A stretch of 24,022 nucleotides of DNA from a virus, in IMG/VR virus record IMGVR_UViG_3300025671_000528, positions 1-24,022 of that record; one strand, given 5' to 3'. The notes beneath the pieces are model-generated. The model did no database searches, was not told where the DNA came from, and saw nothing but the letters and a program-made list of their open reading frames with translations. Of this stretch, positions 1 through 15,300 are shown piece after piece. Numbering within the stretch: position 1 is the stretch's first letter; every line of letters starts with the position of its first letter. The position numbers were made by a program, and so were the translations under genes.

Positions 1-906
1 GAAGCCTGCGATGCCTGTCGTCGGCACGTCGCTGTTCACGCTCGGCCCCACGCCCCGCTGCCAGACGGTGTTCGCTGCGACGTTGACGAGTGCTCCCGTG
101 GCGGCGTCGTAGATCGCGAAGTGCCCTGGGCCAGGGTCCGTGTTCGTCGTCGCCGTGATCGGGTAGGGGGAGCCTTGGAGGGCGACGGGGAACGGGTTGG
201 TCGCACCGCCGAAGTTGTTGGAGCCTGTAGGCGTCACTCCGGCGTTCGTCATGACACGATCAACTTCCAGCGCAAGGCAGTTGATGAATTCCGCGCCGAC
301 ACTTGCTGTCCCTGAGGCGGACATAAAGATTGCCCTTTTGCCCGTTGCGGCGGCAGGTGCCCGCAGGAAGGTGCAGTTGACGACGCTAAAGGTGGTCGTG
401 CCCGAAGACTCCAGAATGTAAATGCTTTCCTGCGAGGGGGTGCTGAATACGCAGTTGACCAGCGACAGCGACGACACGTCCTCGTTGATTCTCACCGCCT
501 TGTAGCTAGGGTTGCTTATAAGGCCCCGAGTGACACTAACTCCCGTTGTGGAAGGTTGAACTTGCAGGACCGATCCAATGACTCCCGAAGCTGTGAACTC
601 CAAACCGTCTAGGGTCATGTAATCGTCTTGGAGTTGATTATCTGTCCCTCCGGTAGCCGTAAGGACTACACCGCCTCCGAACACGCCGCCGTGCTCACTC
701 CCAGCCGCAGGCTTATAGGTCACCTGCCTCGTCGCATCGGTCGTCAGCGAGCTACTGAACGCCACGCTCTCGACGTAGGTCGCAGCATCCGCCAAGAACT
801 CGATCCGCTCGTTCTCGAACACGAGGTCCGCGCTCCCGCCGATGTTCTCAACGTCAGCCTCAGCCGCCGTGAACGTCGCGTAGTCCCGCCCAACAGGCCC
901 GATGGT
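1..906 (-). repeat. Fibre module 6 (outer type, cut by window edge)
   Basis: Begins at residue 1660 with TIGPVGRDYATF and runs off the window within its end block (DVPTTGIAGF). The lead reads AEADVENIGGSADLV, like module 1, followed by SEHGG as in inner modules. Rungs include LSLVNCVF, FSVVNCTF and AEFINCLAL. Confidence 0.8.
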
Positions 907-3900
907 CCTCGTCAGCACCGCAGTCGCCTGAGCCAGCGCAAACGCTCCGGGGTTCGTCGTCGTGCCTGACCGGGTGTCTCCGAGGATGTCGGTCGTCGGC
1001 ACGTTGCTGTTCGAGGCTGGCCCGACGCCTCCGTTGATGACATCGTTGTTGGGCGAGTCGAGGAGCGCACCGTTCTTGCCGACGTACAGCGCGAAGTCGC
1101 CTGCGCCGGGGTCGTAGGCGGTGGATGCGGTGACCGGGTAGGGGGAGCCTTGGATGGCAGCGGGCCAGGGGCTTGTGCTGCCGCCGAAGTTGTTGGAGCC
1201 TGTGACCGTTACGGTGCCAGACGCCAGATACACCCCAGCACCATTGAGCATTAAGTTGTTTACCGCGTCAAGACTTATGGTTGCCGTTCCGCTCTGAAGG
1301 ACGCGAATAGCTACGAGTCCAGAGGGGCCGTCCAAGATCGTGTTGTTGTATAGCGTCACCGCCTGGGCTCCGGTAGAACACTGCAACAGAAAGCTGTAGT
1401 TATTGGAGCTGATAACACAGTTACTGACCTCAACGGCCAGAACTGTGTTGCCAATCACAAAACCCTGCGTAGTAGCGTTGATGATGCAGCGGCGGGTCAC
1501 GGTGCCAGTGCAAGCGTCGATGTTGAGGGTCTGAGTCGAAGACCCGTTCACCTCAATGCCCTCAAAGAGCATGAAGCTGTCGCGGAAGAAGTTAATTGAA
1601 GCCGAGTTGATAACCACCCCGGCTCCGACCACGCCTCCGTGCTCGCTCCCAGCGGCGGGCTTGTACGTCACATTCCGCGTTGCATCCGTTGTCAACGTGC
1701 TGCCGAAGTACACGTTCTCCGAGTACGTCGCCGCGTCCGCCTCAAAGACGAACGCCCGGTTCGTGAACGTGATGTCCTCGGACGGCAGACTTGCTTCGGC
1801 CAACGTGAACGTCGCGTAGTCTCGGCCCACAGGCCCGATGGTCTGGGTCGTCACGGTCGGCGCAACGAACCCATCGGCCTCAAACGCTCCGGGGTTGCAG
1901 CTCGCGCCTGAGCGGGCCACACCGTTGATGTCCGTGGTCGGCACGTCGCCGTTCGAGCCTGGGCCGACTCCCTGCTGCCACACGTCGTTCCCCGGCTTGT
2001 CGGCAAGGGCTCCAGTGGCCCCCATGTAGACCGCGTAGTCGCCGGAGCCCAGCGGGGTGCTGAAGCTCGTGGTGGCGGTGATCGGGTAGGGGGAGCCTTT
2101 GATCGCATCGGGGAAGGGCTGCGTTGTGTTGCCAAAGTTGTTGGAGCCCGAAGTCGTCAGCGCCCCAGTCGTAAACAGAGTGCGGAACGTCTGCGCGTGC
2201 GAGAGGTTGATCGTGTTCACTACCTCAACGGTGACATCGCTTGGCGTCTGGATTGAAATCGCAGCAAGGCCCGTCCCCGCCAAGGTGCAGTTCACGATGC
2301 GAGCGTGAATCTCTCCGGTAGCACCTCCAGCGATGCCGATGCCACTTCCTGTGCCAAGAGCCACGCAGTTCTGCAAAACAGATGGGTGCGCCGCGCTCCC
2401 CGCTCCCCCAGCAGCCGCGCCAGTATTCAGCTCCACCTCAAATGCCGTGAAGTTTGCGCTGTTGGCTCCTGTGACTGTGAGGCCATCTAGAGTGCATCCC
2501 TCGCACGAATCACCGCTCGCAGGGATTATCTCTACGCCCCTGCACGCTGCTCCTGTGTTCGTGTTTGTGATTTGAAGCCGCCGCAAAGTCGTGAACACAC
2601 CGTCCCTAATCTGAAGCACGCCAAAGGACGCATCCGTTTCTATGTGCGCGATATCAAAGGTCGCACTTTGGAACGTGACATTCCGCGTGGGGTCACAGGT
2701 CAGCGCGTGGTCGATTATGACGCTCTCCGAGTACGTCCCCGCGTCAGCCTCGAACACAAACGCCCGGTTGGTGAAGGTGATGTCCTCAGCGGGCAGCGAA
2801 GCCTCGGCTAGAGTGAACGTCGCGAAGTCTCGGCCCACAGGACCGATGGTCTGAGTCGTGACCGTGGGCGCAACGAACCCATCGGCCTCGAAGGCCCCAG
2901 GGTTACAGGTCGCGCCTGACCGGGCCACGCCGTTGATGTCCGTGGTCGGAACGTCGGAGTTGGTTCCAGGCCCCACGCCCTGCTGCCACACGTCGTTCCC
3001 GGTGACGTTCGCGAGCGAGCCGTTGCTGCCCATGTAGACCGCGAAGTCGCCCGCGCCCAGCGGCGTGGAGAAGCTCGTGGTCGGCGTGATCGGATAGGGG
3101 GAGCCTTGAAGGGCGACGGGCGACAGTGCCCCAGCAGCGTAGTTGTTCGATCCTGTGCTTGTCGTGTTGGCGTGTTCGCTGTAGGCGATCGACCCAGTGA
3201 GAAACAAGTTGTTTAGAAGCGTGACACTTGCGGCGACGCTTGGCTGGTCAATGATGGCACTCGTAGACGCGAAGAACGTGCAGTTCAGGAAGGCGCAGGA
3301 GTTGCTGCCGTTGACCGTGGCCGGGTTGAAGTTGACGCCCCATGCCCCTGTATCGCGGAACACGCAGTTGCGGAACACAGTCTGGTCCGCGCCTTCGCGA
3401 ACTTGGGTATATCCTCCGGTGGTTGTAGAAGGCCCAATAATGAGTCCCTCTAGAACTCGACCAGTTGTCGGCAGGGCAAGATAGACAGCAGTGACCTGCG
3501 ATTTGATATTTAGGCCACGCAGGGCCATGTAGCTGTCTCGCAGATTGACGGGGGTCGTCGATGCTCCGTCAATGATCACCCCAGCGTCCTTGTCGCCACC
3601 GTGCTCTGAACCTGTCGCAGGCTTATAAGTCACCTGCCTCGTCGCATCTGTCGTGAGCGAACTCTGGAAAGTAATGATCTCGTTGTACGTCGCCGCATCC
3701 GCCTCAAACACGAACGCCCGGTTCGTGAACGTGATGTCCTCAGCAGGAAGCGAAGCCTCGGCCAGAATGAACGTCGCGTAGTCTCTGCCCACAGGCCCGA
3801 TGGTCTGGGTCGTGATCGTGGGCGCAACGAACCCATCGGCCTCGAACGCCCCAGGGTTGCAGCTCGCGCCACTCCTCGCCACCCCGTTGATGTCGGTCGT

Positions 3901-5883
3901 GGGAACGTCGCTGTTGGTTCCTGGCCCGACGCCCTGCTGCCACACGTCGTTGCCCGTGACGTTCGCGAGGGCTCCGGTGGCCCCCATGTAGACCGCGTAG
4001 TCGCCGGAGCCTAGCGGGGTGCTGAAGCTCGTGGTCGCGGTGATCGGGTACGGGGAGCCTTTGATCGCATCGGGAAACACATGGGTCGCGCTTGTCTGCG
4101 GGCCGAAGTTGTTCGAGCCCAGCACCGTGTTGGTGCCCCCGCCGCCCTGATCACGCAAGTCCTCCGCCGCCGACAAGATCAGGTTGTTTGTGATCGTGTA
4201 GGTGCTGTTATTCGTGCTGCTGAAGATGTCAAAGGCTCTGCCGCTGCATCTAATTGTGCAGTTCGTGACCGTCCATGCCTTGTCGCTCGCGCCGTAGTTC
4301 CACAGCCTGAAGCCATCAGCGCTGCTCCCGTCCAGCACGCAGTTACTGACTTGAACAGGGAAGGATTGCGTGTCTGAGGTGTTGGACTGAGTCGACTGAA
4401 ACACGACTCCAGTACCCGCGCTCCGAATGATGCAGTCGCTAAAGGTGACGCCTTCTATGTTCTTTTGCGTTTCGGCTGGACGCCCAGTGCCACCGCTGTC
4501 CGTCCAATCAAACTCCAAGCCTTTGACAGCAGTGAACGGGTCGTTGACCCCGACGCACGCACTGCTCAGAGATAGGTTGCCAAATTGGATCCGCACCCCT
4601 TGGCCCGGTACGCCGCCGTGCTCACTCCCCGCAGCAGCCTTGTAGGTCACGTTCCTCGTCGCGTCCGTCGTTAGCGAGCTGTCGAACGTCACGCTCTCCG
4701 AGTACGTTGCCGCATCCGCCTCGAACACGAAAGCTCGGTTCGTGAACGTGATGTCCTCCGCAGGAAGCGAAGCCTCGGCTAGGGTGAACGTCGCGTAATC
4801 ACGACCCACAGGACCGATCGTCTGCGTCGTCACCGTGGGCGCAACAAACCCATCGGCCTCAAATGCTCCGGGGTTACAGGTCGCCCCTGAGCGGGCCACG
4901 CCGTTGATGTCGGTCGTCGGGACATCGGAGTTGGTTCCTGGGCCGACTCCCTGCTGCCACACGTCGTTGCCTGTGACGTTCGCGAGCGAGCCGTTGCTGC
5001 CCATGTAGACCGCGTAGTCGCCTGAGCCGAGGGGCGTGGAGAAGCTCGTTGTAGGCGTGTACTGCGCTCCGATCCCGCCGCCGATGTTGGCGAAATGGAA
5101 GGAGGAATTTGAGCCTGCCGCGTTCCCGATGTTGTTTGTCGAGCCAGAGATATCGACGCCGCCGCCCGTGATGTTTGCGTCGTTGCTCGTATTCTGGGCG
5201 AGGTTCGCGCAGTTGATGATCTTGAACGAGGCGTCCGGCATACCGCCAGTCAGCGCCCAGTTCCACACTTGGTTAGGCGAGGAGCCGCCAAGGTGCGTAC
5301 AGTTGACGACGAGGCAGTGAGCCCCCGTCGTGTGCCCGGTGCCTGAGATGAACTGACTGACGGCGACGATTGACTTCGTGACGAGGTTGCGGAGCGTGAT
5401 AGGTTCCGAACTTGTGCCCAGCGCATGGCCTGTCGCGAACTTCTCGCAAGAGACGGCGCTCACGCTCGCTGTGATCGTCGCGTTCTCGATGACGGTGCCA
5501 GCCTGCGCTGCGCCATATCCCGAGTTGGCGCGAACCTGCGTGGCTGCGCTGCCTGAACTTGCGAGTACGTCGATACCGCTCCAGCGCGTGTAGGGGTCGA
5601 AGAACGCGACGCCTGTTCCCGTGCCTGTGTACTCGTAGACAGGCCGACCGCTTGCCGCCGTGTAGGAGACGTTGCGCGTAGCGTCTACGGTCAGCGCGGT
5701 GTTGGCGATGTTCAGCGTGGATGCAGTCGTGAACGTCGTGTCGTCGGCCTCGAACACGATCGCCTCGTCGTTAGCGACGAGGTCCGCCGAGGTCCCGATG
5801 TTCGACGTATCTGCCTCGGCCAAGGCAAACGTAGTGTAGTCACGGCCAGTCGGGCCGATTGTCTTGATGATGACCGTGACCAC
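1..5883 (-). CDS. Giant modular beta-helix tail fibre/spike protein (C-terminus outside window)
   Basis: The minus-strand frame is open without a stop from 5883 to the window edge, at least 1961 codons. The start is GTG at 5883, chosen because an AAGGAGG ribosome binding site lies 8 bases upstream and an in-frame TGA lies two codons before. The protein consists of six tandem modules of about 310-350 residues. Each opens with TIGPxGRDYxTF, followed by a beta-strand-rich lead, a variable core with ladder-like rungs such as VVNCTF, VSNCVL and VTNCTI, then GSNNFG, SPYPIT, GDYAVYMG and a closing NPGAFE. Rungs of this kind with a GAFE-type ending are typical of right-handed parallel beta-helix surface proteins. 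Position after the tail-tip genes points to a receptor-binding or carbohydrate-degrading fibre. No catalytic motif was recognised. Most diversity lies in the cores while the framework is conserved. The C-terminus, and so any trimerisation or chaperone domain, is not visible. Confidence 0.9.
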   Translation of the reverse strand, partial: MVTVIIKTIGPTGRDYTTFALAEADTSNIGTSADLVANDEAIVFEADDTTFTTASTLNIANTALTVDATRNVSYTAASGRPVYEYTGTGTGVAFFDPYTRWSGIDVLASSGSAATQVRANSGYGAAQAGTVIENATITASVSAVSCEKFATGHALGTSSEPITLRNLVTKSIVAVSQFISGTGHTTGAHCLVVNCTHLGGSSPNQVWNWALTGGMPDASFKIINCANLAQNTSNDANITGGGVDISGSTNNIGNAAGSNSSFHFANIGGGIGAQYTPTTSFSTPLGSGDYAVYMGSNGSLANVTGNDVWQQGVGPGTNSDVPTTDINGVARSGATCNPGAFEADGFVAPTVTTQTIGPVGRDYATFTLAEASLPAEDITFTNRAFVFEADAATYSESVTFDSSLTTDATRNVTYKAAAGSEHGGVPGQGVRIQFGNLSLSSACVGVNDPFTAVKGLEFDWTDSGGTGRPAETQKNIEGVTFSDCIIRSAGTGVVFQSTQSNTSDTQSFPVQVSNCVLDGSSADGFRLWNYGASDKAWTVTNCTIRCSGRAFDIFSSTNNSTYTITNNLILSAAEDLRDQGGGGTNTVLGSNNFGPQTSATHVFPDAIKGSPYPITATTSFSTPLGSGDYAVYMGATGALANVTGNDVWQQGVGPGTNSDVPTTDINGVARSGASCNPGAFEADGFVAPTITTQTIGPVGRDYATFILAEASLPAEDITFTNRAFVFEADAATYNEIITFQSSLTTDATRQVTYKPATGSEHGGDKDAGVIIDGASTTPVNLRDSYMALRGLNIKSQVTAVYLALPTTGRVLEGLIIGPSTTTGGYTQVREGADQTVFRNCVFRDTGAWGVNFNPATVNGSNSCAFLNCTFFASTSAIIDQPSVAASVTLLNNLFLTGSIAYSEHANTTSTGSNNYAAGALSPVALQGSPYPITPTTSFSTPLGAGDFAVYMGSNGSLANVTGNDVWQQGVGPGTNSDVPTTDINGVARSGATCNPGAFEADGFVAPTVTTQTIGPVGRDFATFTLAEASLPAEDITFTNRAFVFEADAGTYSESVIIDHALTCDPTRNVTFQSATFDIAHIETDASFGVLQIRDGVFTTLRRLQITNTNTGAACRGVEIIPASGDSCEGCTLDGLTVTGANSANFTAFEVELNTGAAAGGAGSAAHPSVLQNCVALGTGSGIGIAGGATGEIHARIVNCTLAGTGLAAISIQTPSDVTVEVVNTINLSHAQTFRTLFTTGALTTSGSNNFGNTTQPFPDAIKGSPYPITATTSFSTPLGSGDYAVYMGATGALADKPGNDVWQQGVGPGSNGDVPTTDINGVARSGASCNPGAFEADGFVAPTVTTQTIGPVGRDYATFTLAEASLPSEDITFTNRAFVFEADAATYSENVYFGSTLTTDATRNVTYKPAAGSEHGGVVGAGVVINSASINFFRDSFMLFEGIEVNGSSTQTLNIDACTGTVTRRCIINATTQGFVIGNTVLAVEVSNCVISSNNYSFLLQCSTGAQAVTLYNNTILDGPSGLVAIRVLQSGTATISLDAVNNLMLNGAGVYLASGTVTVTGSNNFGGSTSPWPAAIQGSPYPVTASTAYDPGAGDFALYVGKNGALLDSPNNDVINGGVGPASNSNVPTTDILGDTRSGTTTNPGAFALAQATAVLTRTIGPVGRDYATFTAAEADVENIGGSADLVFENERIEFLADAATYVESVAFSSSLTTDATRQVTYKPAAGSEHGGVFGGGVVLTATGGTDNQLQDDYMTLDGLEFTASGVIGSVLQVQPSTTGVSVTRGLISNPSYKAVRINEDVSSLSLVNCVFSTPSQESIYILESSGTTTFSVVNCTFLRAPAAATGKRAIFMSASGTASVGAEFINCLALEVDRVMTNAGVTPTGSNNFGGATNPFPVALQGSPYPITATTNTDPGPGHFAIYDAATGALVNVAANTVWQRGVGPSVNSDVPTTGIAGF
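907..1842 (-). repeat. Fibre module 5 (inner-type lead, divergent end)
   Basis: 312 residues. The lead has AEASLPSEDITFTNR and SEHGG. Core rungs include VEVSNCVI, VTLYNNTI and LDAVNNLM. The end block diverges from modules 1-4: GKNGALLDSPNNDV, then DILGDTRSG and NPGAFALAQA. Confidence 0.85.
1843..2850 (-). repeat. Fibre module 4 (inner type, altered core entry)
   Basis: 336 residues. It shares the inner-type lead up to AEASLPAEDITFTNR but lacks the SEHGG landmark. Rungs include SVLQNCVAL, ARIVNCTL and VEVVNTINL. Its end block has ATGALADKPG and ASCNPGAFEAD, like module 2. Confidence 0.85.
2851..3804 (-). repeat. Fibre module 3 (inner type)
   Basis: 318 residues. The lead is nearly identical to module 2 and ends TGSEHGG. 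Core rungs include TVFRNCVF, CAFLNCTF and VTLLNNLF. The end block has SNGSLANVTG and ATCNPGAFEAD, as in module 1. Confidence 0.85.
3805..4821 (-). repeat. Fibre module 2 (inner type)
   Basis: 339 residues. The lead contains AEASLPAEDITFTNR and AAGSEHGG. Core rungs include VTFSDCII, VQVSNCVL, WTVTNCTI and YTITNNLI. It ends with ATGALANVTG and ASCNPGAFEAD. Its end block at 3988-4074 differs from module 4 (2026-2112) at only 3 of 87 bases. Confidence 0.85.
4822..5862 (-). repeat. Fibre module 1 (outer type)
   Basis: Runs from TIGPTGRDYTTF (residue 8) to just before the next TIGP, 347 residues. Its lead reads AEADTSNIGTSADLV, which matches module 6 rather than modules 2-5. Rungs in the core include LVVNCTHL and FKIINCANL. 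It lacks the SEHGG and SPYPIT landmarks of the other modules and ends with SNGSLANVTG and ATCNPGAFEAD. Confidence 0.85.
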
Positions 5884-5886
5884 GGA

Positions 5887-6249
5887 TCACGCCTCCTTGT
5901 CGATCGTGATCGCCTGAATCTCGGCCCAGGTCTTTTCGATCCCAGCGTCGTGCGCCTCGTCCTCAGGCACCCACGTCTCGAACTCCGAGCCCGTGAGCGT
6001 CACCTGATACCGACGCTTGCCGAGCTGCTCCGGCGGGTCCTGAGTGTCGTCCTCCCACGGCTGCATGAGCGCGAGCACGTCGGGGTCGTCGGCTTCCTTG
6101 TCGGTGCAGTAGCAGAACAGGAACCCACTCTCGGTCGGCGTGACTGCCGACCCAGGGTTCTGGTGGCCGTCAAGGATCTGAACGACATCGTTGTCGTCGT
6201 AGGTCAAGCCGCCGCTGGGCTTCGCGGTGATGATGAGGGCGTGAGACAT
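5887..6249 (-). CDS. Small tail-tip-associated protein of unknown function
   Basis: A 120-residue acidic protein starting MSHALIITAKPSGGLTYDDN. It has no signal peptide or membrane segment. A CYC motif occurs near residue 47, and the C-terminal half is rich in Asp and Glu. The ATG at 6247-6249 lies 3 bases after the stop of the large tail-tip gene, without a recognisable ribosome binding site, so translation is probably by reinitiation. The fibre gene follows in the SAME reading frame: the stop TGA is separated from the fibre GTG by a single codon. Position between tip protein and fibre suggests a small structural adaptor or a fibre assembly factor, but I do not recognise the family and the role is inferred only from context. 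Confidence 0.75.
   Translation of the reverse strand: MSHALIITAKPSGGLTYDDNDVVQILDGHQNPGSAVTPTESGFLFCYCTDKEADDPDVLALMQPWEDDTQDPPEQLGKRRYQVTLTGSEFETWVPEDEAHDAGIEKTWAEIQAITIDKEA
5892..5898 (-). promoter_or_regulatory. Ribosome binding site of the fibre gene
   Basis: The minus strand reads AAGGAGG here, 8 bases before GTG 5883. It is the strongest Shine-Dalgarno match in the window and fixes the fibre start. It lies inside the last codons of the upstream 120-residue gene, so the two genes are probably translationally coupled. Confidence 0.8.
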
Positions 6250-6252
6250 AAA

Positions 6253-9200
6253 TCAGGGTGCGGGCGAGGGAGGCCCGGCTTCGGTGTAGTCGAGTAGTTT
6301 AAGGGCGTTCAAGGTCGTCGGCATCGTGCCCAGCTGAGGGCCTGTGGACTCGTCAGTCTCTCTGTAACGAACGGCTTCCCAGTTGCCGTCTTGCCCGAAG
6401 GTGACGTAGAAGTAGTTCTCAGGCACGTCGTAGTATCCTACCCCGTCTTGAACTTCCGGGGGGTCCTGAGTTTCCCAAGTTGCGTCGTAGTCGTCGCCGC
6501 TTGACTTCACAAGAACCTGCCCCGGCAATCCACCCGAGGGCATTTCACCTTCAGTGGCGGTTCTTGCATCAACCTCAGTCATTGCAGGCGCGGCGGCAGC
6601 GTTTCCTAGCGAAGTGGACGAAGCAGGAACCACTTTGAACTGCCTCCCTGCCGACACAGGCAAGCTAGTTCTTACAGGAGGCACCTGACCGTCCCGGTAG
6701 ACGTACACAAAGTCTCCGTCCGACAGAGTCACCGGGGTCGGCCTCAAACAACCCTCGACTCGATACACCCCGCCACCCAGATCGACGATGCTTCGGAACG
6801 TGAACATCTCTCCCCGACTGGTGGCCCCTCGCATGACTGAGCTGCTCGCGTTTGATGCGTCGGCTCGCGGCACCGCGTCGGTGAACATGGGCACTGGCGT
6901 GTAGAACGTGATGTTGGTCACATCGGTAGATGTCCAGTAGCCGCCGCCTACTCCAGGCACGCTCCCCACGGTCCAGTACGAAACCCCGTCTTCCGACGCG
7001 AGCACAACGCCCTGGGTGGCTCGCTTGTCTGTTGGCAGGCGAAGCACCACAATCCCTTCGTTCGTGTTGAACGTGCCCGAGGACAAGTCTGACGTGATAG
7101 GTGCTGGGAAATAGCTAGGCCCGCCTACGTCGAAAGTGATGGGATCTTCGTCCAGCAGGAACGACTCAGGGTAGGCAGTGACATCCACCTCTCTGGATTT
7201 TGGCTGGACGTTGACCGACAAGATGCGGTGGGCCAGGCTGTCATTGGTGATGGCTGAAACGTCGATCACGTCATTGGACCGAAGCGTCATCGCGTCCCGC
7301 ATCAGCTTGAACTTCGTGATCGAGGTCTTGGACTGTTCCTCAGACGCTCGACGTGAAGCGATCAGCTGTCCAGCAATAACGTCCCTCGGGGTTCTGAGGT
7401 CGTCTCTCTCGACCCCGGAGCGTTCAGCGACCTGTACGTTGCCGTGTTCGTCAGCCTCGATGCTGCGCGTCTGGTACTCCTCGGACGCAGACTTGTAAGT
7501 GAAGACGATGGTCTTGGTCGGGTCTGACTCCAGCTTGCGGGTCCTGGCAGGCACCGTTTTCGTCATCAACTCCTGAGGAACCGAAGTCACAGGAGCTGCG
7601 GGCCTTCTCAGCCCAAAGACGTATTTGCCTTGCACAAGGTCCCACGTCACATCAATGCCAACCTCCAGCATCAGTGCCGACAGACGCTCTTTGACAGTCG
7701 CGTAGTCTTCGACGATCAGGTGGCACCGGATCCCCTCGGTGTCGAGCGTCGTAGCAATGGCCTGAAGTGAGGTCAGATCCCAGCAGCTTGGGTCCAACCC
7801 CAGCCCGTGCGGATCCGTGTCGAACATCAGCTGGTAGAGGATATGCGCGGCGTTCGCGCCAGCGTCCCCATCGGCGTCCACGACGTAAGGACAAACCTCA
7901 CCGACAAAGTTAACTCTTCCGGTTAGGTCGAAGTCGGTTTCTACCACCGTCGTGCCTTGAATGCTCAAGTACGGAGCGAACCGGAGCGCGGGCTGAAACT
8001 GCCCCCCTGCGGAAGGAGCGTCCGGCTTTCGAAGCCACATCTCCCCATACAGCCCGCCTTGAACGCTAGCAAACGTCACATCAACCTGGATCTGGTCGGT
8101 GGCGTCAATGGTGTTTACGGAGCTGCTCGCACCTGTGGCGAGCCCAAACCTAAGGAAGCACCAACGGGGCCCTAGGTTGAGGAAGTCCGTGACCGTGACA
8201 TCTCCCTGAATGGTTCCCAGCGTCGGCTGTCCTTGATTTCCACCCGGCCAGTCGATTTGAACTGACCCCGACTCAAGAGATGAAGAGGTTGCGTCCGACC
8301 TAAGGGCCACCGTCGCGGTGTGGTCCTCGACGATGATCAAACTCGACACATGGAAGTAGCCTTCAAACCACGAGAAACCGTCTCCGAAGTCTTCCTCGGT
8401 AGACCCGCCGGGGGGCAAGTAGCCCGACGCCCCAGGTGCCAAATCTCGGGTCAGCTTCAGAGTCTTGGCAGCAAACGTCCCCTGAGACGTGTACCGGACT
8501 CCGTGATAGTTGGTAGGGTCAACCCCAGGAGGGCCTGAGGTCAGAGGAGCTGCCTTAGACTCGGTGCCTTGGGTCGCGGTTTCGGCCCAGTACGTCAGCG
8601 CATCGGTCTCCAGGGCTCGATCTTGGTATACCGTATCGGGTGCAGTGAACACGCTGGTGGCGTCGTAGGTCGCCCCGTATGACCTCCCATAAGCGATCGG
8701 CAGCTCCGTGCCGCCCACACTACCGGGCTCGTACTTCAGAGCCAAGTAAGCGCCTGCGGCAAGCTCCGTAGAGGCGTCTCCAATGATCCGAATCGAGTTG
8801 TTCGGCAGGTTAGGGCTGCTTACATAGTAAAACAGCACGTCGAAGCAGTTCGCTTCGTCGATCTTCCTGGCGTTACGGAACCAAGGGTCTGAGGTGCCTC
8901 CCAGGTTTGTTCCGCTCACCGACACGACATCTTCGTAGCTGTCGGTTCCGTCCGCGCCGTAGCGGTTGTTGTCGTTGTACGGACGAGACTCAATATCGAC
9001 CTGGAAGTTGCCCAGTGTGCCCGCGCCGCCCAGGCGCAACGAAGGCCAGTACAGGTAGCACACAAAGGGGAGCCGGGTCTGCGTAGGAAACCCGCCGCCG
9101 ACTGGCCCGAATGCGTCCGTCTCAACGGGCTGGTCCTCTTCGCCCCAATAGATCCTGAACGGCCCTGGCGACTCGGGGTCACTGGCCGTCCTCCCCGTAG

Positions 9201-9651
9201 AGAACTGAGTGCCTGAAGGAGCCTCGTGAGCCCGCACTCCGTTGGGGTATTCGCTGGCCCCGCCAGAAGTAGGCATTGGCCAGATGCGTTCGCCGTTGTA
9301 CTTGATCTCAAGCAAGCGGTGCGCCGGGCCGACACACACGCCCATCAAGTACGAAGCGTAAAAGACTTCGTTCGTGAGGCCCCCGCCCCCGGCTCCAACC
9401 CCTTTGCCGCCTGCGGTAGACTGTGACTCTAGACGAACCTCGCGGTTCCATTCAGAGAGCACTAGCGGCGCTAGCAGGTCTCGCCCGACCAACAGAGGCA
9501 GTTGATCCCCCCGCGTAGCCTTGGTGGAGCGAAACTCAGGAGTCTCGGCCTTAGGGGAGTCAGGCTTGAAGATGCTTCGCAGCACCTGACCGACCAAGAA
9601 ACCAGCCGCCACCTTGGACGCAAACGTGATGATCGTGACGGGATCAGCCAT
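6253..9651 (-). CDS. Large tail-tip/baseplate protein (GTA gp15 'megatron' / lambda gpJ position)
   Basis: A 1132-residue protein starting at ATG 9651, with AAGGAG 8 bases upstream, overlapping the peptidase stop as TAATG. The N-terminus carries a hydrophobic stretch (about residues 7-27) and then a conserved-looking block (LPLLVGRD at about 51, YLMGVCVGPAHRLLEIKYNG at about 101-120) of the kind found in tip proteins of lambda-like and GTA-like tails. A central part around residues 600-850 (GLDPSCWDL, KERLSALMLEVGIDV, VFGLRRP) resembles the hub-like domain of such proteins. Near residue 1040 a GQVLVKSSGDDYDATW segment matches a motif common at fibre-attachment ends. It presumably closes the tail tip and anchors the fibre encoded next. 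It is shorter than the roughly 1300 residues of GTA gp15, and I did not see the N-terminal TIM-barrel part of that family. Confidence 0.85.
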   Translation of the reverse strand: MADPVTIITFASKVAAGFLVGQVLRSIFKPDSPKAETPEFRSTKATRGDQLPLLVGRDLLAPLVLSEWNREVRLESQSTAGGKGVGAGGGGLTNEVFYASYLMGVCVGPAHRLLEIKYNGERIWPMPTSGGASEYPNGVRAHEAPSGTQFSTGRTASDPESPGPFRIYWGEEDQPVETDAFGPVGGGFPTQTRLPFVCYLYWPSLRLGGAGTLGNFQVDIESRPYNDNNRYGADGTDSYEDVVSVSGTNLGGTSDPWFRNARKIDEANCFDVLFYYVSSPNLPNNSIRIIGDASTELAAGAYLALKYEPGSVGGTELPIAYGRSYGATYDATSVFTAPDTVYQDRALETDALTYWAETATQGTESKAAPLTSGPPGVDPTNYHGVRYTSQGTFAAKTLKLTRDLAPGASGYLPPGGSTEEDFGDGFSWFEGYFHVSSLIIVEDHTATVALRSDATSSSLESGSVQIDWPGGNQGQPTLGTIQGDVTVTDFLNLGPRWCFLRFGLATGASSSVNTIDATDQIQVDVTFASVQGGLYGEMWLRKPDAPSAGGQFQPALRFAPYLSIQGTTVVETDFDLTGRVNFVGEVCPYVVDADGDAGANAAHILYQLMFDTDPHGLGLDPSCWDLTSLQAIATTLDTEGIRCHLIVEDYATVKERLSALMLEVGIDVTWDLVQGKYVFGLRRPAAPVTSVPQELMTKTVPARTRKLESDPTKTIVFTYKSASEEYQTRSIEADEHGNVQVAERSGVERDDLRTPRDVIAGQLIASRRASEEQSKTSITKFKLMRDAMTLRSNDVIDVSAITNDSLAHRILSVNVQPKSREVDVTAYPESFLLDEDPITFDVGGPSYFPAPITSDLSSGTFNTNEGIVVLRLPTDKRATQGVVLASEDGVSYWTVGSVPGVGGGYWTSTDVTNITFYTPVPMFTDAVPRADASNASSSVMRGATSRGEMFTFRSIVDLGGGVYRVEGCLRPTPVTLSDGDFVYVYRDGQVPPVRTSLPVSAGRQFKVVPASSTSLGNAAAAPAMTEVDARTATEGEMPSGGLPGQVLVKSSGDDYDATWETQDPPEVQDGVGYYDVPENYFYVTFGQDGNWEAVRYRETDESTGPQLGTMPTTLNALKLLDYTEAGPPSPAP

Positions 9652-10115
9652 TACCAGTTCTCCTTGCCGGGAAGGCGATAGTGCGAGTGAAACTCAAGCC
9701 CCGACAAACCAAAGCTCGTCATGGCAACGCCGTCCGATGTCGCGTGGTAGAAGCGAGGCCAGGGACCAGACAGTATGACGTGGGTCGGACCAGCACCGGG
9801 ATAGGCGCAGATGATTACGTCCCCTGGCTCCAGCGTGCTGTCGGTCACCTTCTGCACGTCCCACAACCTAGCCATCTTGCGAAGGAAGCTGCGCGAGATT
9901 TCGGGTTGATGCAACGCCGCGTCCTCGGGCAGAAGCTCCAGCACAGTCTCGGTGCCGTACAGCTGATCAAGAACGCCCAGGACGAAAGACCTACAATCAC
10001 AACCTACTCCAGGCTGCTGGTGCCCAGGGCGGTACGGAGTCCCTACCCAAGGCGCGATGGCCGCTTTCAGGGACGCCTCGGCGTCGGGACTGATGGCTTT
10101 CCTGGTGAACTGCAT
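9651..10115 (-). CDS. NlpC/P60-type tail peptidoglycan peptidase (GTA gp14 / lambda gpK position)
   Basis: A 154-residue cysteine peptidase. The start is taken as ATG 10115, which overlaps the hub stop as TGATG; a GTG one codon upstream (10118) is the alternative. Motifs fit the NlpC/P60 fold: GTPYRPG at about residues 25-31, the nucleophile in GCDCRSFV (Cys41, with Cys39 two residues before), a linker with LEPGDVI at about 96-101, and the catalytic His in GPTHVIL (His112), with a second His at 124. In GTA-like tails this enzyme sits between hub and tip protein and helps cut the cell wall as DNA is injected. Length and order match that group. Substrate bond specificity (for instance D-Glu to diamino acid) is family knowledge, not visible here. 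Confidence 0.88.
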   Translation of the reverse strand: MQFTRKAISPDAEASLKAAIAPWVGTPYRPGHQQPGVGCDCRSFVLGVLDQLYGTETVLELLPEDAALHQPEISRSFLRKMARLWDVQKVTDSTLEPGDVIICAYPGAGPTHVILSGPWPRFYHATSDGVAMTSFGLSGLEFHSHYRLPGKENW

Positions 10116-10996
10116 CACTGAGCCACGGGCTTCGCGAAGACGGGGTGGTGGTCAGGAATTTCGACCCCGATGCCTCTGAAGTTCTCGGTCTGCCCGAACG
10201 AAGTGCAGTTCTGGAGGCCCTTGTTACACCCTGGAGCCACCTGAACAGGAAAGGACCCGGCCTCTTCCCAGTAGGTTGGCACAGCTTGGTTCAGGACGAA
10301 GTCGTTGCCCTCACGCCAGTACTTGATGTGAACCCGATGTCCTCCGAAGTCAACGTAACCGTCCTGCCAATGCCCAGGGGGCTTATTGGGGAGCCCCGTG
10401 ATGGTGATCTCATTGCCTGAAGCCGAGCTTGCCGTCCCGGTCTCCAGCGCATTAGTCAGGTTGAACTTGCAAACCTTGCCTGAGGCGAAATCGTTGCGGC
10501 ACTTCTCAAGGGCGAGGCTGTCCAAGGCTTTCTCGGTGCGCTGCTTCGGGTTGAGGCAAGTGAGCTTGAACACGCCCTCGGCCCCGTCTGTATTGACCTC
10601 GACCGTCAGCAGTTTGCCACAAAACAAGTACGCCCATTCGGTGGCTTCGAGCGTGATGCTCTGATCTTCGATGATGTACTCCACCACCTCGACGGTCACT
10701 GTCGGGTGCGAGCGGCCTGAGACCATGTTCAGAAACGGCTGGATGTTGGCCGAAACTGAGCTGAGGGTGATGATGGCGTCATCTTCCTCCAACGAGCCGT
10801 TGCGCTCAGGCAGTTCAACCTGAAGCGTCGGCTCAGGCGAAAACGTCAAGGTGTCTCCTTGAGCGTCCTGCACGTTGAAGTTGTTGTGCGTGTCGGCCAG
10901 CCGCAGCGGCGACTCCAGCCCGCCCGAAGGGTTGTAGTTGGCGTAGCTAAACGTGACCGTCAATACGCTGATCTGTGACTCGCTCTGTAGGCTCAT
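10115..10996 (-). CDS. Tail hub protein with four-cysteine motif (GTA gp13 / lambda gpL-like)
   Basis: A 293-residue protein. The ATG at 10996 overlaps the distal tail gene stop as ATGA and has GAGGA 7 bases upstream. The C-terminal ending GCNKGLQNC followed by FGQTENFRGIG is characteristic of the DUF2163/BR0599 group to which GTA gp13 belongs. Four cysteines at 166, 176, 257 and 264 form two pairs, C-x9-C and C-x6-C. In lambda gpL and GTA hub proteins four cysteines hold an iron-sulphur cluster, so the same is inferred here. The N-terminal half (residues 1-150) is beta-rich. Two further cysteines, 126 and 147, lie outside the motif. The protein would form the trimeric hub between distal tail ring and tip. 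Confidence 0.85.
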   Translation of the reverse strand: MSLQSESQISVLTVTFSYANYNPSGGLESPLRLADTHNNFNVQDAQGDTLTFSPEPTLQVELPERNGSLEEDDAIITLSSVSANIQPFLNMVSGRSHPTVTVEVVEYIIEDQSITLEATEWAYLFCGKLLTVEVNTDGAEGVFKLTCLNPKQRTEKALDSLALEKCRNDFASGKVCKFNLTNALETGTASSASGNEITITGLPNKPPGHWQDGYVDFGGHRVHIKYWREGNDFVLNQAVPTYWEEAGSFPVQVAPGCNKGLQNCTSFGQTENFRGIGVEIPDHHPVFAKPVAQ

Positions 10997-12399
10997 GTCA
11001 GTTCCTCGGGGACCTTGTCCTCACACTCGACGATGGTGAAGGAGACCTCGCAAATATCGCGGGTGATCCACTTCTCCTCCAACGCACCTGAGAACCTACC
11101 AGCAAAAGCACGGTGCAGGCAAGGAGTCAAGTTGGTGCCGGGAATCTGAAACACGGTGTTGTGCATGTCCAGGTTCCAAGCAGTCACCCGCCCCGCCCCT
11201 CCGACCACAGGACTGCCCGCAGAGATCTCGTTGACGTACCAGTCCCCGTCGTACTGAAAAGCTGTCGCGGTGGTCGTGTTCAGGAAGTCTTGAAGGTTGC
11301 CCCCGATCGGTACGACCAACCTAGTGCTGCTAGCCCGCTGTGCTTTCTCGTAGATGACCGTAGGGCTGACAACCCACATGGGCCTAGCGCCGCCCTGGGT
11401 AGAGTCGAACGCCTGAAGGATCGAGTACCACTCCTGTCGGGTCACTGTCAGCGACGTGACCTCCATCGACCAACGGGGACGGAACCCCGACATTCTCGTC
11501 AAACTGCCCGCACCAGAGTTGCCTGGGCGGACGTAGCTGACTTTAAGCGCCTCTGCCCAGTTGTGGTCTACGGGGAACACTAGGCGGGCCGCGCCGCTCT
11601 GTCCTGTGAACGTGCTGTAGCCAGAAGGGGTCGTCCCGGCAGGCTGCGAAGAGGGCATTACGTTGATGCCGGGGTACTCTTCGCCTGAGATTTCCGCTTC
11701 GATCACCTTGGCCGTGGTGTACGACGAAGGCACTTCGAGCAACGGCAAACAATCCATCACCGGAACTACCCGCCAACCTAGGGCCAGGGGCGGGTCTACG
11801 TCAGTTTGAAACCCTTGCGGGTCGGGCGTCAGCACTAGGCGGTTTGGGTCGCCAGCGGTCATGCTGCCCGGCTGAATTACCGCGTACAGGGCAGGTAGCT
11901 CAGTCGTGCCGTTGAGGCGAAGCAGCGGCGTGTTGTACGGAGGCACCAGGAACACTCCCTGTCCTTCAAAGAACCTGCGGGTGTCCAGATCCTCAACGAC
12001 GATGTACGTCGCTGTCATGTTGACGATTTCAGTCGAGTCACAGTCCAGAGGCAGCTTCCACGACTTGCCCAGACCAAAGCCAAAGAAGTCGTAGGCGTTC
12101 GCCAGAGTAGCGGAGATGTCAGGGCTCGTCCGAGCCAAGAACTGCTCAAGGAAGCCTGCCTTGATCTCGTCCGAGATAGCTGAGAAGCTGGCTGCCCGAA
12201 GAGGGCGCACGTCCAAGGCTGTGTACTGCTCGCGGTTGCCGAACGTGCTGGCCAGCGTCTCCACTTCATACGAGGTTGAGACCCGGAATTCGTCTTTCCA
12301 ATTGTGGTGGGCGTAGGCGGGCCTTCCCAACTCAAGCGGCTGAGACTCCATTGTCCGCGTGAAAGCAGACACCGTAGATGTCAGGCTTCGGAACGGCAT
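10993..12399 (-). CDS. Distal tail protein (GTA gp12 / lambda gpM position)
   Basis: A 468-residue protein whose ATG at 12399 overlaps the tape measure stop as TAATG. No Shine-Dalgarno match is visible, so coupling to the tape measure gene is likely. No signal peptide or membrane segment was seen. The sequence is beta-rich with many aromatic residues, for example TRQEWYSILQAFDSTQGGARPMW-type segments around residues 315-345 that resemble the conserved part of distal tail proteins joining tail tube to hub. It is longer than usual for the role (about 200-300 residues), suggesting an inserted or fused domain in the N-terminal two thirds. The assignment rests mainly on gene order between tape measure and the four-cysteine hub. 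Confidence 0.75.
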   Translation of the reverse strand: MPFRSLTSTVSAFTRTMESQPLELGRPAYAHHNWKDEFRVSTSYEVETLASTFGNREQYTALDVRPLRAASFSAISDEIKAGFLEQFLARTSPDISATLANAYDFFGFGLGKSWKLPLDCDSTEIVNMTATYIVVEDLDTRRFFEGQGVFLVPPYNTPLLRLNGTTELPALYAVIQPGSMTAGDPNRLVLTPDPQGFQTDVDPPLALGWRVVPVMDCLPLLEVPSSYTTAKVIEAEISGEEYPGINVMPSSQPAGTTPSGYSTFTGQSGAARLVFPVDHNWAEALKVSYVRPGNSGAGSLTRMSGFRPRWSMEVTSLTVTRQEWYSILQAFDSTQGGARPMWVVSPTVIYEKAQRASSTRLVVPIGGNLQDFLNTTTATAFQYDGDWYVNEISAGSPVVGGAGRVTAWNLDMHNTVFQIPGTNLTPCLHRAFAGRFSGALEEKWITRDICEVSFTIVECEDKVPEELT

Positions 12400-15300
12400 T
12401 AGCGCATAGGACGCTTGTTGAGCATCCGCAGGGCCTGCTGGTTAGTCCGCTTGTTGATCCCTGCCACGAATTGCGGGTTGTCGTGAATGCGCCTCATGCT
12501 GCGCTCGTCCGTGACCAGCACCGGGAGAACTGCGGTGCCCTGGTTGGAGCTTGCCAGTTGGTCTGCCGTGCGAAGAGTGCCCGAGGCAGGACCGCCCGTT
12601 GCAAAGCCCTTGGGAGCGTTCCTGAGCGACCCGAAGTTCGGCAGGCCGTGGACCCCGCGCCGGAGCTTCTCAAGCGCGTAGAAGAGCCCAGGAGCACGCC
12701 GCTCCATCTCGGGTGTGGCGACGTACTCGCCGGGCCGCAGGAACGCCGGGATCGTGTCCCTGGGGTCGCCGTTGTGAGGCGCTGAAGGGAGCGCCAGGGT
12801 ACTGGAAACTGCACCCGGCCCCGTATGCGCTCCTGCCGTTATCGGTCCCCCAAGTGCATTGGCGGCAGCACCCGTCAGGACCCCGGCCCGACTAGGAGTT
12901 GCCGACACACCCAGCCCAGAAAACGCTGCCTGGGCCTGTTGAGCGTACAACGCGGTTGTCAGACTAACGAGTGCAGCCGTGTTCGTCTCCAACGCGATGT
13001 TGTTGAAGAGCTGAAGACCGAACAGCTCCGAGAGGCCGTTCAGCAGGGGCTGGAACAGGAACTTGTCGATCACCGCGTTGACGAACTGGTTCGCGAGGTC
13101 TTGGCCCAGACGTCGGGCGAGCAGCCCGAAGTCCACGTCTTCACCAGTGAATGCTGCCTGAAGCGCCGTCGTAGCGGCGTTCTTGACCCCGGCTTGCAGC
13201 GTCTGGAACGTGCCCGTGAACAGGGTCTGGGAGATCGCCTCGGTAGTCAGTTGGCTACTGAGCGTGTCAATCGCGCCCGCGCCGCCCCGGCCCACGTTGC
13301 TCAACGACAGGAGCTTCCGTGTGCGCTCTAGCTGCTTGTCGATTTCCTCGTTCTGGAGCTTCAGGATCTCGGCAGAGTCGAGATCTACCTCGTTGCGCTG
13401 TTTCGCCAGCCTCACGAACTCTTTGAACGCCGCGTTCTCCTGAGGGTAGCGTTGGCCAAGTTTCGCCAGCAGTAGTTCCGCAGCAGCCACTCCCTCGTTG
13501 CGGGCCTCGACCCGCTTCAAGATCTGCTCGCGCTCGATCAGGTTCTCTCGAATTTGAGAGCCCCCTTCAATGACCTGACGAAGCTGATCCCCCAATGGAC
13601 CGAACACGGGCACCTGACGCAGACGCTCCGCAGTTTGAAGGTCGGGGCGTTGCTGCACGTCGGCTTGAGCGTTCAAAATCTCAAGCTGCTTGGTGACTAG
13701 CTCCAGGCGGTCCTTCTCTCCCTGTTTCAGGTCCGCGTCGATCAGCTTACGCTGCGCCTTCAGTAGCAGCAATCTGCTACTGAAGGCGCTCTGAGTTTTG
13801 ATCGCCTCGTTGATCTCTTTCTGCGTGCGAAGGAGTGCTTCGTTCTTCTTTTCTGTCTCGACCAGGGCCTCGTTCAGGGATTTGATCACATCCTCTGTGC
13901 CCGTGCCCAGAGCGCCTGCCTGAGCAGCCGCCAACTCTCCCTGAAAACCACGGTTGAACTCCCTGAGAGATTTGGCGAAGTCCTCGGCAGTCAGCAGCTT
14001 GGAGACTGCTCCGGCGGAAATGCCCTCTCCGATATCTTCCCCGAGCCCAAACAGTTTATTGCTGAGAGAGCGAACCCCTGACGAGATCGCCTCAAAGAGA
14101 TCGTCAGAGAACCCGTCCAGCCCGACGCCGCCCTCTGGCGTAAGCCCCTCCAAGTCTTCTTTGAACGGACTGACACTGATGAACCTATTTATCTCAGTTT
14201 CCAGGTTGCTGATTTGGTCAATGCGCTCCTGAATGCGTTTGTCAATGCGCTCGGATTCAGCTAGGGACGCGCCACGCGCTTTTCTCTTTTGATCCTCGTA
14301 GATCCTCAGCACGCGCTGCGCGTTGCGTAGTTCTTTGACTTGGTCTTGGACAAGCTTGGCTTCAGCGGCAAAATTCCCCGCAGCCCCGAACTCGCCGGAG
14401 AAGAAACGCTTGGCGATCCCGATAGTGACCTTGAGTCCGTTAGCTGCTGCTTCAAGATTTGCGTTCAGCCCAGGCAACGATGCAGCGAACTTTTCAACTG
14501 CAACGATCCCTGCCAAGATCAGTAGCGGAGTCGCCAGGAACGCGGAGTTGACCGCAAGTGCTGCCGCCTTGAGCCCGGCCAAACTGAAAGTCAGCGACCT
14601 AGTCGCAGTGACCAGTTTTCCAATGCCCGCAGTGATCTGCTTCGGGGTCAGGAAGATCAGCAACTTGAGAGCTGCCGATGCCGACAAGCTGGCCGTTGCA
14701 ATCGCGGCAAACGAACTTAGTGCCCTACCTAGCGCACTCCCTGAAAGCTCTTGAACAGCTTCAAGAAGACCAAGTGCGACACTGAACAGGATGTTAAACA
14801 CCTGCACGAGCGGGGCGAACGCGGTAGCTACCAGTGCCGCAGACTCGCCAAGCTCGAAAAAGCCCTTTGCCAGAAGCCCGATCAGCTCCCCGAATGGCTG
14901 ACCGTCCCTGCCCAGGATTTCAGTGATCTCGTCGAACGGCTCGACCAAGAACTGGATAAACGTAGCCAGTTCGCGTTGAGCTTCGTCGTTTGAAAGAGCG
15001 TCCCTAACCTCAGAGCCAACCCGTCCCAAGGTGTCTCTCAGTTGTTCGGTGCCCGCTGCACCTGCCAACCGGAACGCATCCTCAAGGTCGGAAGCAATGA
15101 CCGGGAGCGTGTTACGCAGAGCCTCAGAAGCCTCAGCAATACCCGAGAACTTCTCCTGAATAAACTCGAACAGCCTGCCCGCTTCTTTTGCCTTGCGGAT
15201 GTCCGGGTTCGTAATTCCGAGCGCCGTGGCAATTCGCGTGTCTCGCGGGCGAACGGTGCCCTGAAGCACCGAGCGGATCTCTTCAGCAAGCTGGGTCTGC

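What the first reader, a model, noticed from the sequence alone, without database searches (positions are those of the whole stretch)
1..5883. Very long tail fibre made of at least six tandem beta-helix modules
One frame of at least 1961 codons holds six modules starting at residues 8, 355, 694, 1012, 1348 and 1660 (periods 347, 339, 318, 336 and 312). Each has a conserved lead (TIGPxGRDYxTF) and a conserved end (GDYAVYMG ... NPGAFE) around a core that differs from module to module. Most phage spikes carry a single beta-helix. A string of swappable beta-helices with fixed joints would be a ready-made architecture for multi-receptor binding or for serial evolution of host range.
Basis: partly seen in the sequence, partly recalled or inferred. 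Interest (0 to 1): 0.7.

Follow-up and report, generated by a model that had tools for sequence, protein, structure and literature searches.

The report
Swappable beta-helix arrays on phage tails
The window carries the start of a very long phage tail protein built as a string of beta-helix domains, and related viruses carry the same two-gene cassette plugged into quite different tail genes, with single domains traded between them, which looks like a shared, fast-changing toolkit for sticking to bacteria.

Summary
A near-identical contig (L007) shows a complete gene: 2050 codons, six modules, a short C-terminal tail. Structure prediction of one module and of a pair gives right-handed beta-helices. 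Relatives in IMG/VR carry 1 to about 8 modules at the N-terminus, fused to unrelated C-terminal parts: podovirus nozzle, T4 gp15-like, (weaker) lambda gpL-like and DUF2460-like, and unknown ones. An orphan 120-aa gene lies directly upstream in 27 of 29 contigs where this could be seen, so the unit is a two-gene cassette. In three podovirus-type contigs the cassette splits the nozzle gene where intact homologues are continuous. Modules are traded: the window equals L007 for the first 4781 bases of the gene, then carries another sixth module, 92% identical to a module of a phage with a different C-terminal part; L007 and L008, about 98% identical outside, share one of 6/7 module cores. Virion location is inferred from fusions and context; glycan binding is likely but not shown. 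Four queries found no match in 50,697 phage records. Best reading: an exchangeable tail-adhesin array; new variant of a known kind.

The parts
1..5883 (-). Array gene ('fibre'): six beta-helix modules, 5' end complete, 3' end cut by the contig end
   Evidence: complete relative of 2050 codons in L007
4822..5862 (-). Module 1 (residues 8-354)
3805..4821 (-). Module 2 (355-693); the only module whose core L007 shares with L008 (87% aa)
2851..3804 (-). Module 3 (694-1011); predicted right-handed beta-helix
1843..2850 (-). Module 4 (1012-1347); predicted beta-helix in the module 3-4 tandem model
907..1842 (-). Module 5 (1348-1659)
   Evidence: L007 copy
1..906 (-). Module 6 (1660-1961, cut): core differs from L007 module 6; 92% nt identical to L011 module 2
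1..1102 (-). Exchanged stretch: window and L007 are identical for the first 4781 nt of the gene (5883-1103) and differ from 1102 on, starting inside the C-cap of module 5
5892..5898 (-). Shine-Dalgarno-like AAGGAGG before the GTG start of the array gene; lies inside the 3' end of the 120-aa gene
5887..6249 (-). 120-aa orphan gene, first gene of the two-gene cassette (called q120 here)
6253..9651 (-). Upstream neighbour: tail protein, hub-like by place (phrog_1101 E 1e-7)
9651..10118 (-). NlpC/P60-like tail gene (context; E 2e-4, just under the Pfam cut-off)
10115..10996 (-). BR0599/phrog_778 tail assembly protein (context)
12399..16658 (-). Tape-measure-like protein (context; phrog_10093 E 7e-11)

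Best explanation
The window holds a two-gene tail-adhesin cassette: a 120-aa protein of unknown function followed by a protein whose N-terminal part is a string of right-handed beta-helix domains and whose C-terminal part is a virion anchor. The anchor ties the chain to a tail structure, the string points outward, and the variable sides of the helices contact surface polysaccharides of the host. The conserved module ends serve as joints and as DNA homology for recombination, so single modules, runs of modules or the whole cassette are replaced between phages, also between phages with different tail types. Shown by sequence: array, cassette linkage, anchor fusions, split nozzle genes, module exchange. 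Predicted: the fold. Inferred: presence in the virion, outward orientation, glycan binding, and that the 120-aa protein is an assembly partner (chaperone, cap or adaptor).
For: Fold: AlphaFold2 module 3 pLDDT 80, pTM 0.70; VIA Z 19.1 to alginate lyase 6kfn (rmsd 2.6, 208 aligned), 18.4 to tailspike 6c72 (2.6, 200), 18.3 to Pam1 tailspike 7eea (2.7, 200); tandem model pLDDT 83.7, second module Z 22.1 to 5mqp (rmsd 5.0, 264 aligned). Cassette: 120-aa gene upstream of the array in 27 of 29 contigs with upstream DNA held; 29 of 29 loci with the 120-aa gene and downstream DNA held have a module next (8 of the 37 loci set aside because the contig ends in or within 90 nt after the gene; only L078, L080 and L093 are contigs not already in the first count). 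Anchors: Phage_nozzle 1.6e-40, T4-gp15 3.8e-13; below Pfam's cut-off Phage_tail_L 1.3e-4 (with phrog_18 1e-6) and DUF2460 7e-4. Split nozzle in 3 of 3 nozzle-type contigs against continuous genes in CRP-227 and three others. Exchange. Ka/Ks 0.15-0.37 in 10 comparisons: shared modules, 120-aa gene, both nozzle parts.
Against: No virion proteome, no isolate, no binding data. No shared catalytic or binding residue was found in the cores. The C-terminal 79 residues of the L007/L008 type match no family, so the anchor of this phage is not identified. All data are metagenomic contigs; in 30 of 54 loci the array is cut by a contig end, so some arrays could be mis-joined. Two contigs (L057, L058, 100% identical over 2032 bp) have an array without the 120-aa gene. 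Foldseek scores of the module are modest: 3 PDB matches at E 0.001 or better, TM-scores about 0.4, none in BFVD.
Confidence: 0.68

Rival explanations
1. General accessory decoration: the modules give weak, unspecific adhesion (to particles, mucus-like polymers or cell envelopes), like phage Ig-like domains, and are not the receptor-binding protein that fixes host range.
For: The array is fused to several unrelated tail proteins, is the N-terminal part, and two copies of the 120-aa gene occur in one contig (G005). In the window phage a hub-like gene exists beside it.
Against: Cores are much more variable than frames and are exchanged between near-identical phages, as expected for specific recognition under selection.
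Confidence: 0.2
2. Array of polysaccharide-cleaving enzymes (depolymerases): each module digests a different surface polysaccharide.
For: Best fold neighbours are pectin methylesterases, lyases and depolymerase tailspikes.
Against: Of the residues D, E, H, K, R, Y and W, only D90 (43 of 55 modules) is conserved in at least half of the rows at a core position; the core residues conserved in 80% or more are G, N, C, V, T. This argues against one shared active site, not against different sites in single modules.
Confidence: 0.12
3. The variation is an assembly artefact: short-read assembly joined modules of different strains through the conserved frames.
For: Many contigs end inside an array or at its start (30 of 54 loci; eight further loci). 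The window's exchanged stretch runs to the contig end.
Against: The same arrays recur in contigs of different IMG identifiers: L009/L010 100% over 7111 bp with all three modules, L022/L023 99.98% over 4009 bp, L047/L048 100% over 8954 bp. Flanks stay 97-99% identical while arrays of 6 and 7 modules differ. Whether those identifiers are independent samples was not checked.
Confidence: 0.06
4. The product is not in the virion (secreted or host-cell-surface protein of an infected cell).
For: The module ends match choice-of-anchor Q, a name used for bacterial proteins with varied anchors (family use recalled).
Against: Fusion in frame to nozzle and gp15-like proteins; the window protein begins 7 residues before the first module, leaving no room for a signal peptide.
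Confidence: 0.03

Closest known systems
Phage tailspikes with right-handed beta-helix (for example Fri1 gp49 6c72, Pam1 tailspike 7eea)
   Same: Predicted fold of each modelled module; tail gene context; exchange of receptor-binding parts is known for them (recalled, and PMC8432352 in the listing)
   Different: Here up to about 8 helices in one chain, no N-terminal virion-binding domain, different C-terminal parts, linked 120-aa gene
Choice-of-anchor Q domain (NF041518)
   Same: C-terminal cap of the modules: 61.5 bits for the whole window protein, four stretches, cut-off 25
   Different: Of four single modules tested, three score 18.6-22.3 bits, below the cut-off, and module 5 is not listed; phage tail proteins at the C-terminus
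Ig-like accessory domains on phage structural proteins (recalled; only search listings seen)
   Same: One kind of domain appended to unrelated virion proteins of different phages
   Different: Different fold, long arrays with variable cores, a second gene in the unit, and splitting of the target gene
Domain shuffling in phage receptor-binding and neck-passage proteins (Smug et al. 2023, PMC10684548; start of abstract and passages seen)
   Same: Recent exchange of domains, including pectin-lyase-like ones, in otherwise similar phages
   Different: The two examples seen there keep the N-terminus and exchange the C-terminal domain; here N-terminal arrays are exchanged over a kept C-terminus, with many modules per chain and a two-gene cassette
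Podovirus nozzle / tail tubular protein B (T7 gp12 6r21; P-SCSP1u gp23 8i4m; PF25675)
   Same: Both parts are present in L012, L021, L025
   Different: Encoded by two genes with the cassette between them; the C-terminal part carries the array at its N-terminus

Membership tests
Right-handed parallel beta-helix proteins | beta-solenoid fold | tested here: met
   Predicted models of modules 3 and 4, Z 15-22 to many solved beta-helices; prediction only, other modules not modelled
Choice-of-anchor Q domain (NF041518) | profile score above 25 bits | tested here: inconclusive
   Whole window protein 61.5 bits; three single modules 20.8, 18.6, 22.3 bits, the fourth tested not listed
Phage tailspike | N-terminal virion-binding domain before the beta-helix | tested here: not met
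   First module starts at residue 8 in the window; in 34 arrays with visible start the first module begins at residue 8-39 counted from the preceding stop
Phage tailspike | homotrimer | not testable with these tools
Phage tailspike | polysaccharide cleavage or binding | not testable with these tools
   No conserved charged pair in the cores, which does not settle it
Shuffled phage receptor-binding proteins | recently exchanged domain in an otherwise similar gene | tested here: met
   Window/L007 and L007/L008 comparisons
Shuffled phage receptor-binding proteins | receptor binding | not testable with these tools
   No binding data
Diversity-generating retroelement target | reverse transcriptase in the same genome | tested here: inconclusive
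   RVT_1 in 0 of 9 contigs; 3 of 14 control genomes positive; contigs may be incomplete
Phage Ig-like accessory domains | Ig fold | tested here: not met
   Modules 3 and 4 are predicted beta-helices
Podovirus nozzle (PF25675), for L012/L021/L025 | both parts of the nozzle profile present | tested here: met
   L012: 1-583 and 585-790 of 794; L021: 1-584 for the N part; L021 and L025 C parts and L025 N part by alignment to CRP-227

The most novel reading that the evidence does not exclude
A dedicated two-gene adhesin cassette (orphan 120-aa protein plus N-terminal beta-helix array) plugs into unrelated tail genes of podo-, sipho- and myo-type phages, in podoviruses by splitting the nozzle gene so that the nozzle is rebuilt from two chains, and draws its modules from a pool shared across these tail types. 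It would be a portable host-recognition organ whose unit of evolution is the module, not the phage.
Probability: 0.55. Interest if true: 0.88.

Novelty: new variant of a known kind. Interest (0 to 1): 0.77.

Why it matters
Phage receptor-binding proteins are usually seen as a constant N-terminal virion part with an exchangeable C-terminal tip. Here the order is reversed, the exchangeable part is a string of many domains, and the same cassette is found on tail proteins that belong to three tail types. If it binds hosts, it gives natural examples of many beta-helix specificities in one interchangeable frame, a split tail nozzle that must assemble from two chains, and a way to test how fast recognition modules move between unrelated phages. 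Four queries of this family (window protein, two 120-aa proteins, a 736-aa piece of the L047 array) have no match among 50,697 phage records, so it has probably been out of sight of laboratory work.

Tried and rejected
Plus-strand reading of 1-5883: many stops, rejected. Pfam and PHROGs on the window protein: no usable match. The NCBIfam hits to ribonuclease HII (32.8 bits, cut-off 364) and BagM_FevK (16.2 bits, cut-off 420) were taken as chance. PDB by sequence for the modules (six-row and 55-row profiles) and the 120-aa protein: nothing significant. PHROGs for the 24 120-aa proteins: best E 0.021, not used. tblastn of the window protein, its hub, two 120-aa proteins and a 736-aa piece of the L047 array in INPHARED: no match. 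The gp15-like part of L018 has one weak INPHARED match (E 6e-7, 30% covered), so no empty site could be shown for that slot.

Diversity-generating retroelement: no RVT_1 in 9 contigs. Silent donor modules elsewhere in the contig: in 10 of the 11 IMG/VR records searched all module matches lie in one array gene; G004 has matches in two frames at its two contig ends. The two end loci of G004 share no stretch of 100 bp at 95% identity, so its ends were not shown to be one array. Terminal redundancy of the L011 contig: tested and not found; its second 120-aa gene has a different upstream gene, so it is read as a second cassette. Special pairing of the 120-aa gene with the first module: correlation 0.44 with the first N-cap (24 loci); in the 15 loci with two or more modules 0.43 with the first and 0.47 with the second, so no special link. 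Gemmatimonadota as host: 1 of 298 genomes of the phylum has full modules, three more have weak partial matches; the 120-aa gene rang in 0 of 298, an answer the tool calls empty without a positive control, and DNA next to that array is masked; the array lies in a MAG among cellular genes, so the host is not inferred. Catalytic site common to all modules: not found.

Rows dropped before counts: the 59 modules leave out duplicate loci L010, L020, L023, L035-L037; one search printed its list of similar cores from 38% under a heading that says 45%, recounted. The upstream test leaves out L010 and L019 (array starts 43 and 138 nt into the locus), arrays cut at their 5' end, L038 (masked), L064 (one C-cap match only), and L046, L065, L066 as second loci of contigs already counted; L014/L015 and L022/L023 are near-identical contigs but counted apart. 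In one search eight loci are set aside (L072, L077, L082, L083, L085, L094, L095, L096). The 54 loci include second loci of some contigs (L029/L046/L050, L061/L069, L062/L067, L007/L065, L008/L066).

Full report
1. Observation. The frame is on the minus strand, 5883 to 1, starts with GTG behind AAGGAGG, and runs into the contig end. The window is an IMG/VR record of 24,022 bases. Six leads at residues 8, 355, 694, 1012, 1348, 1660 are exact. A query of module 3 with the edges of its neighbours finds the other five places at E 8e-112 to 1e-58. In the L007 copy of the gene the cores are 23-37% identical while the frames are 46-89% (15 pairs).

2. The whole gene. L007 (53,782-base contig) matches the window at 99.5% over 14.1 kb and has an end: 2050 codons, six modules and 79 further residues. 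L008 has seven modules and the same 79 residues. The 79-residue end matches no Pfam or PHROG family. It holds two copies of a VWD/VWN...GTFG/GSFG motif; L071, a different fibre-like protein, carries similar motifs on both sides of a stretch that looks like a beta-helix (by eye), so the motif looks like a fibre joint or attachment element (inference).

3. Fold. Module 3 with 55 aligned modules gives pLDDT 80 and pTM 0.70, the tandem of modules 3 and 4 with 36 rows pLDDT 83.7. VIA-align places module 3 with alginate lyase 6kfn (Z 19.1, rmsd 2.6, 208 aligned), pectin methylesterases (up to 19.0), and tailspikes 6c72 and 7eea (18.4, 18.3); these rows cover model residues 1-256, so the C-cap is little tested there. 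In the tandem the second module gives Z 22.1 to 5mqp (rmsd 5.0, 264 aligned) and, over nearly its whole length, 17.9 to 9cdv (rmsd 4.6, 286 aligned). Foldseek alone is modest: 3 PDB matches at E 0.001 or better, none in BFVD. The C-terminal cap matches choice-of-anchor Q. Core residues conserved in 80% or more of the modules are G, N, C, V, T (for example N146, N174, N198 in module 3 numbering), as in an asparagine ladder (recalled).

4. Relatives. Two viral scans with module alignments and one with the 79-residue end gave loci L007-L034, L039-L064 and L065-L071. Complete arrays hold 1 to about 8 modules; L047 is 3282 residues stop to stop. In all 34 arrays with a visible start the first module begins at residue 8-39 counted from the preceding stop. 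The C-terminal parts are of many kinds: nozzle in L012, with L021 and L025 shown by alignment; T4-gp15-like in L018 (E 3.8e-13), with L017, L047, L057, L059 and L078 judged by eye from the translations; Phage_tail_L (below cut-off) / phrog_18-like in L011 and L027, with L026, L031, L033 by eye; DUF2460-like, below cut-off, in L034 and L030; minor tail phrog_13352 in L019; the others unknown.

5. The 120-aa gene. The window gene 5887-6249 has relatives 30-93% identical (24 sequences). It lies directly before the array in 27 of 29 contigs found through array searches whose upstream DNA is held; the exceptions L057 and L058 are 100% identical to each other over 2032 bp. The gap from its last sense codon to the first module is 23-34 nt in 23 of 24 measured loci and 56 in one. 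Searching with the 120-aa family gave 37 loci: 29 of 29 with downstream DNA have a module next, 8 end first; most of these are the same contigs as in the first count, only L078, L080 and L093 are new. It has no usable Pfam, PHROG or PDB relative.

6. Split nozzle. In L012 the gene before the 120-aa gene is Phage_nozzle positions 1-583 (E 3.9e-163) and the end of the array protein is positions 585-790 (E 1.6e-40) of 794. L021 has 1-584 upstream. In Roseobacter phage CRP-227 the two parts match adjacent bases, 24203 and 24204, of one gene, tail tubular protein B; the same adjacency is seen in CRP-361, CRP-125 and CRP-114. Residue numbers on CRP-227 are 1-574 and 575-778 for L012; 1-574 and 588-778 for L021 and L025. 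On P-SCSP1u 8i4m the parts cover 1-587 and 585-802. On T7 gp12 the N part ends at 583. The T7 paper (PMC6702177, passages) puts D478 in blade 6 of the propeller and the fiber dock, on the outer surface, between propeller and C-terminal platform; the split therefore lies near the propeller / fiber dock junction (inference). Ka/Ks is 0.23 and 0.29 for the two parts (L012/L021), so both are kept.

7. T4-like slot. L018 and L047 are 97-99% identical in two upstream stretches (2009 and 555 bp) and 88% downstream (1799 bp), but no stretch of 450 bp at 70% identity joins their cassettes, and their 120-aa proteins differ strongly. Both have the same kind of gene just upstream (phrog_11591, weak); L018 has a head-tail adaptor gene, L047 sheath and tube genes. 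L078 has an upstream end very like that of L018 but a 120-aa protein 76% identical to the window's. So whole cassettes are replaced in one slot.

8. Module exchange. Of 1711 pairs among 59 modules, mean identity is 60% (N-cap), 29% (core), 62% (C-cap); 24 pairs have cores of 45% or more, one of them from two copies of one phage (L014/L015). Examples across C-terminal types: L011.3 and L026.1 (gpL-type), L018.3 (gp15-type) and L015.2 (end cut; its last 28 residues are those of the DUF2460-like L034) share cores of 94-97%; L008.7/L026.2 has N-cap 100%, core 91%, C-cap 55%, with a DNA block of 92% over 1060 bp that starts inside the preceding C-cap and ends inside the next. L007 and L008 are 97.5% identical up to the first N-cap and 98.8% from the last C-cap on; between them 6 and 7 modules, of which only module 2 has a shared core (87%; the next best of 42 core pairs is 38%). 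The window has no mismatch to L007 in the first 4781 nt of the gene, then 25 mismatches up to nt 5089, then a different core; of its last 783 nt, 762 align with L011 module 2 at 92%. Ka/Ks of six shared modules is 0.15-0.37.

9. Limits. All IMG/VR arrays are from metagenomic contigs; in 30 of 54 loci the array is cut by an end. Some arrays recur identically in contigs with other IMG identifiers, which speaks against chimeras, but independence of samples was not checked. Binding, virion presence and oligomeric state are untested. Host unknown; the window's capsid protein is Phage_cap_E, best-ranked record 28.5% identical.

10. Literature. Domain shuffling in phage proteins is known (PMC10684548, start of abstract and passages). 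Searches for tandem beta-helix fibres, choice-of-anchor proteins, shuffled modules, a split or invaded nozzle and hypervariable repeated fibres (titles and starts of abstracts of the listed papers seen) showed no description of this cassette in that open-access library; subscription journals and preprints are not covered. PMC10575957 and PMC7029224 were seen as passages.

11. Judgement. Works like: an exchangeable receptor-binding module system on a tail. Member of: beta-helix proteins (fold predicted). Not a classical tailspike, because the N-terminal virion-binding domain is absent. Confidence in array, cassette and exchange as sequence facts is about 0.95; in a tail-borne adhesin about 0.68.

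Noticed in passing
G005 (contig of L011), 54124-54480 and 2-139; L095 7974-8142: Two 120-aa genes at two places of one contig, with different upstream genes: probably two cassettes in one phage; the second array lies beyond the contig end.
   Followed up: partly
L013, L022, L029, L049, L055, L083, L093, just before the 120-aa gene: A terminator-like hairpin (GC-rich inverted repeat with TTCG loop) precedes the cassette (seen by eye).
   Followed up: no
L071:3350-4858: A different fibre-like protein with the VWNKLIAD...AGSxGE kind of motif of the L007-type C-terminus on both sides of a beta-helix-like stretch.
   Followed up: partly
L051:11924-13126: C-terminal part with a GDSTANG stretch like SGNH esterases (by eye); Pfam gave no match at 0.01.
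   Followed up: partly
L053:3455-6349: Array followed by many Ig/Fn3-like repeats.
   Followed up: no
L017:1680-4619 and 4574-8758: Array gene in two overlapping frames; broken gene or sequencing error.
   Followed up: no
L038:9608-12652: Array in a Gemmatimonadota MAG among cellular genes, alone with full modules among 298 genomes of the phylum; maybe a prophage remnant or a mis-join.
   Followed up: partly
window 22983-24020 (+): A large gene on the plus strand, divergent from the protease, capsid and tail genes; may be the portal by its place (no Pfam match).
   Followed up: no
window 16662-17036 and 16823-17455 (-): Two overlapping frames just before the tape measure, as in tail chaperone pairs made by frameshift (recalled pattern).
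   Followed up: no
L080:8361-9479: A single-module cassette placed shortly after a terminase gene, outside a recognised tail slot.
   Followed up: no
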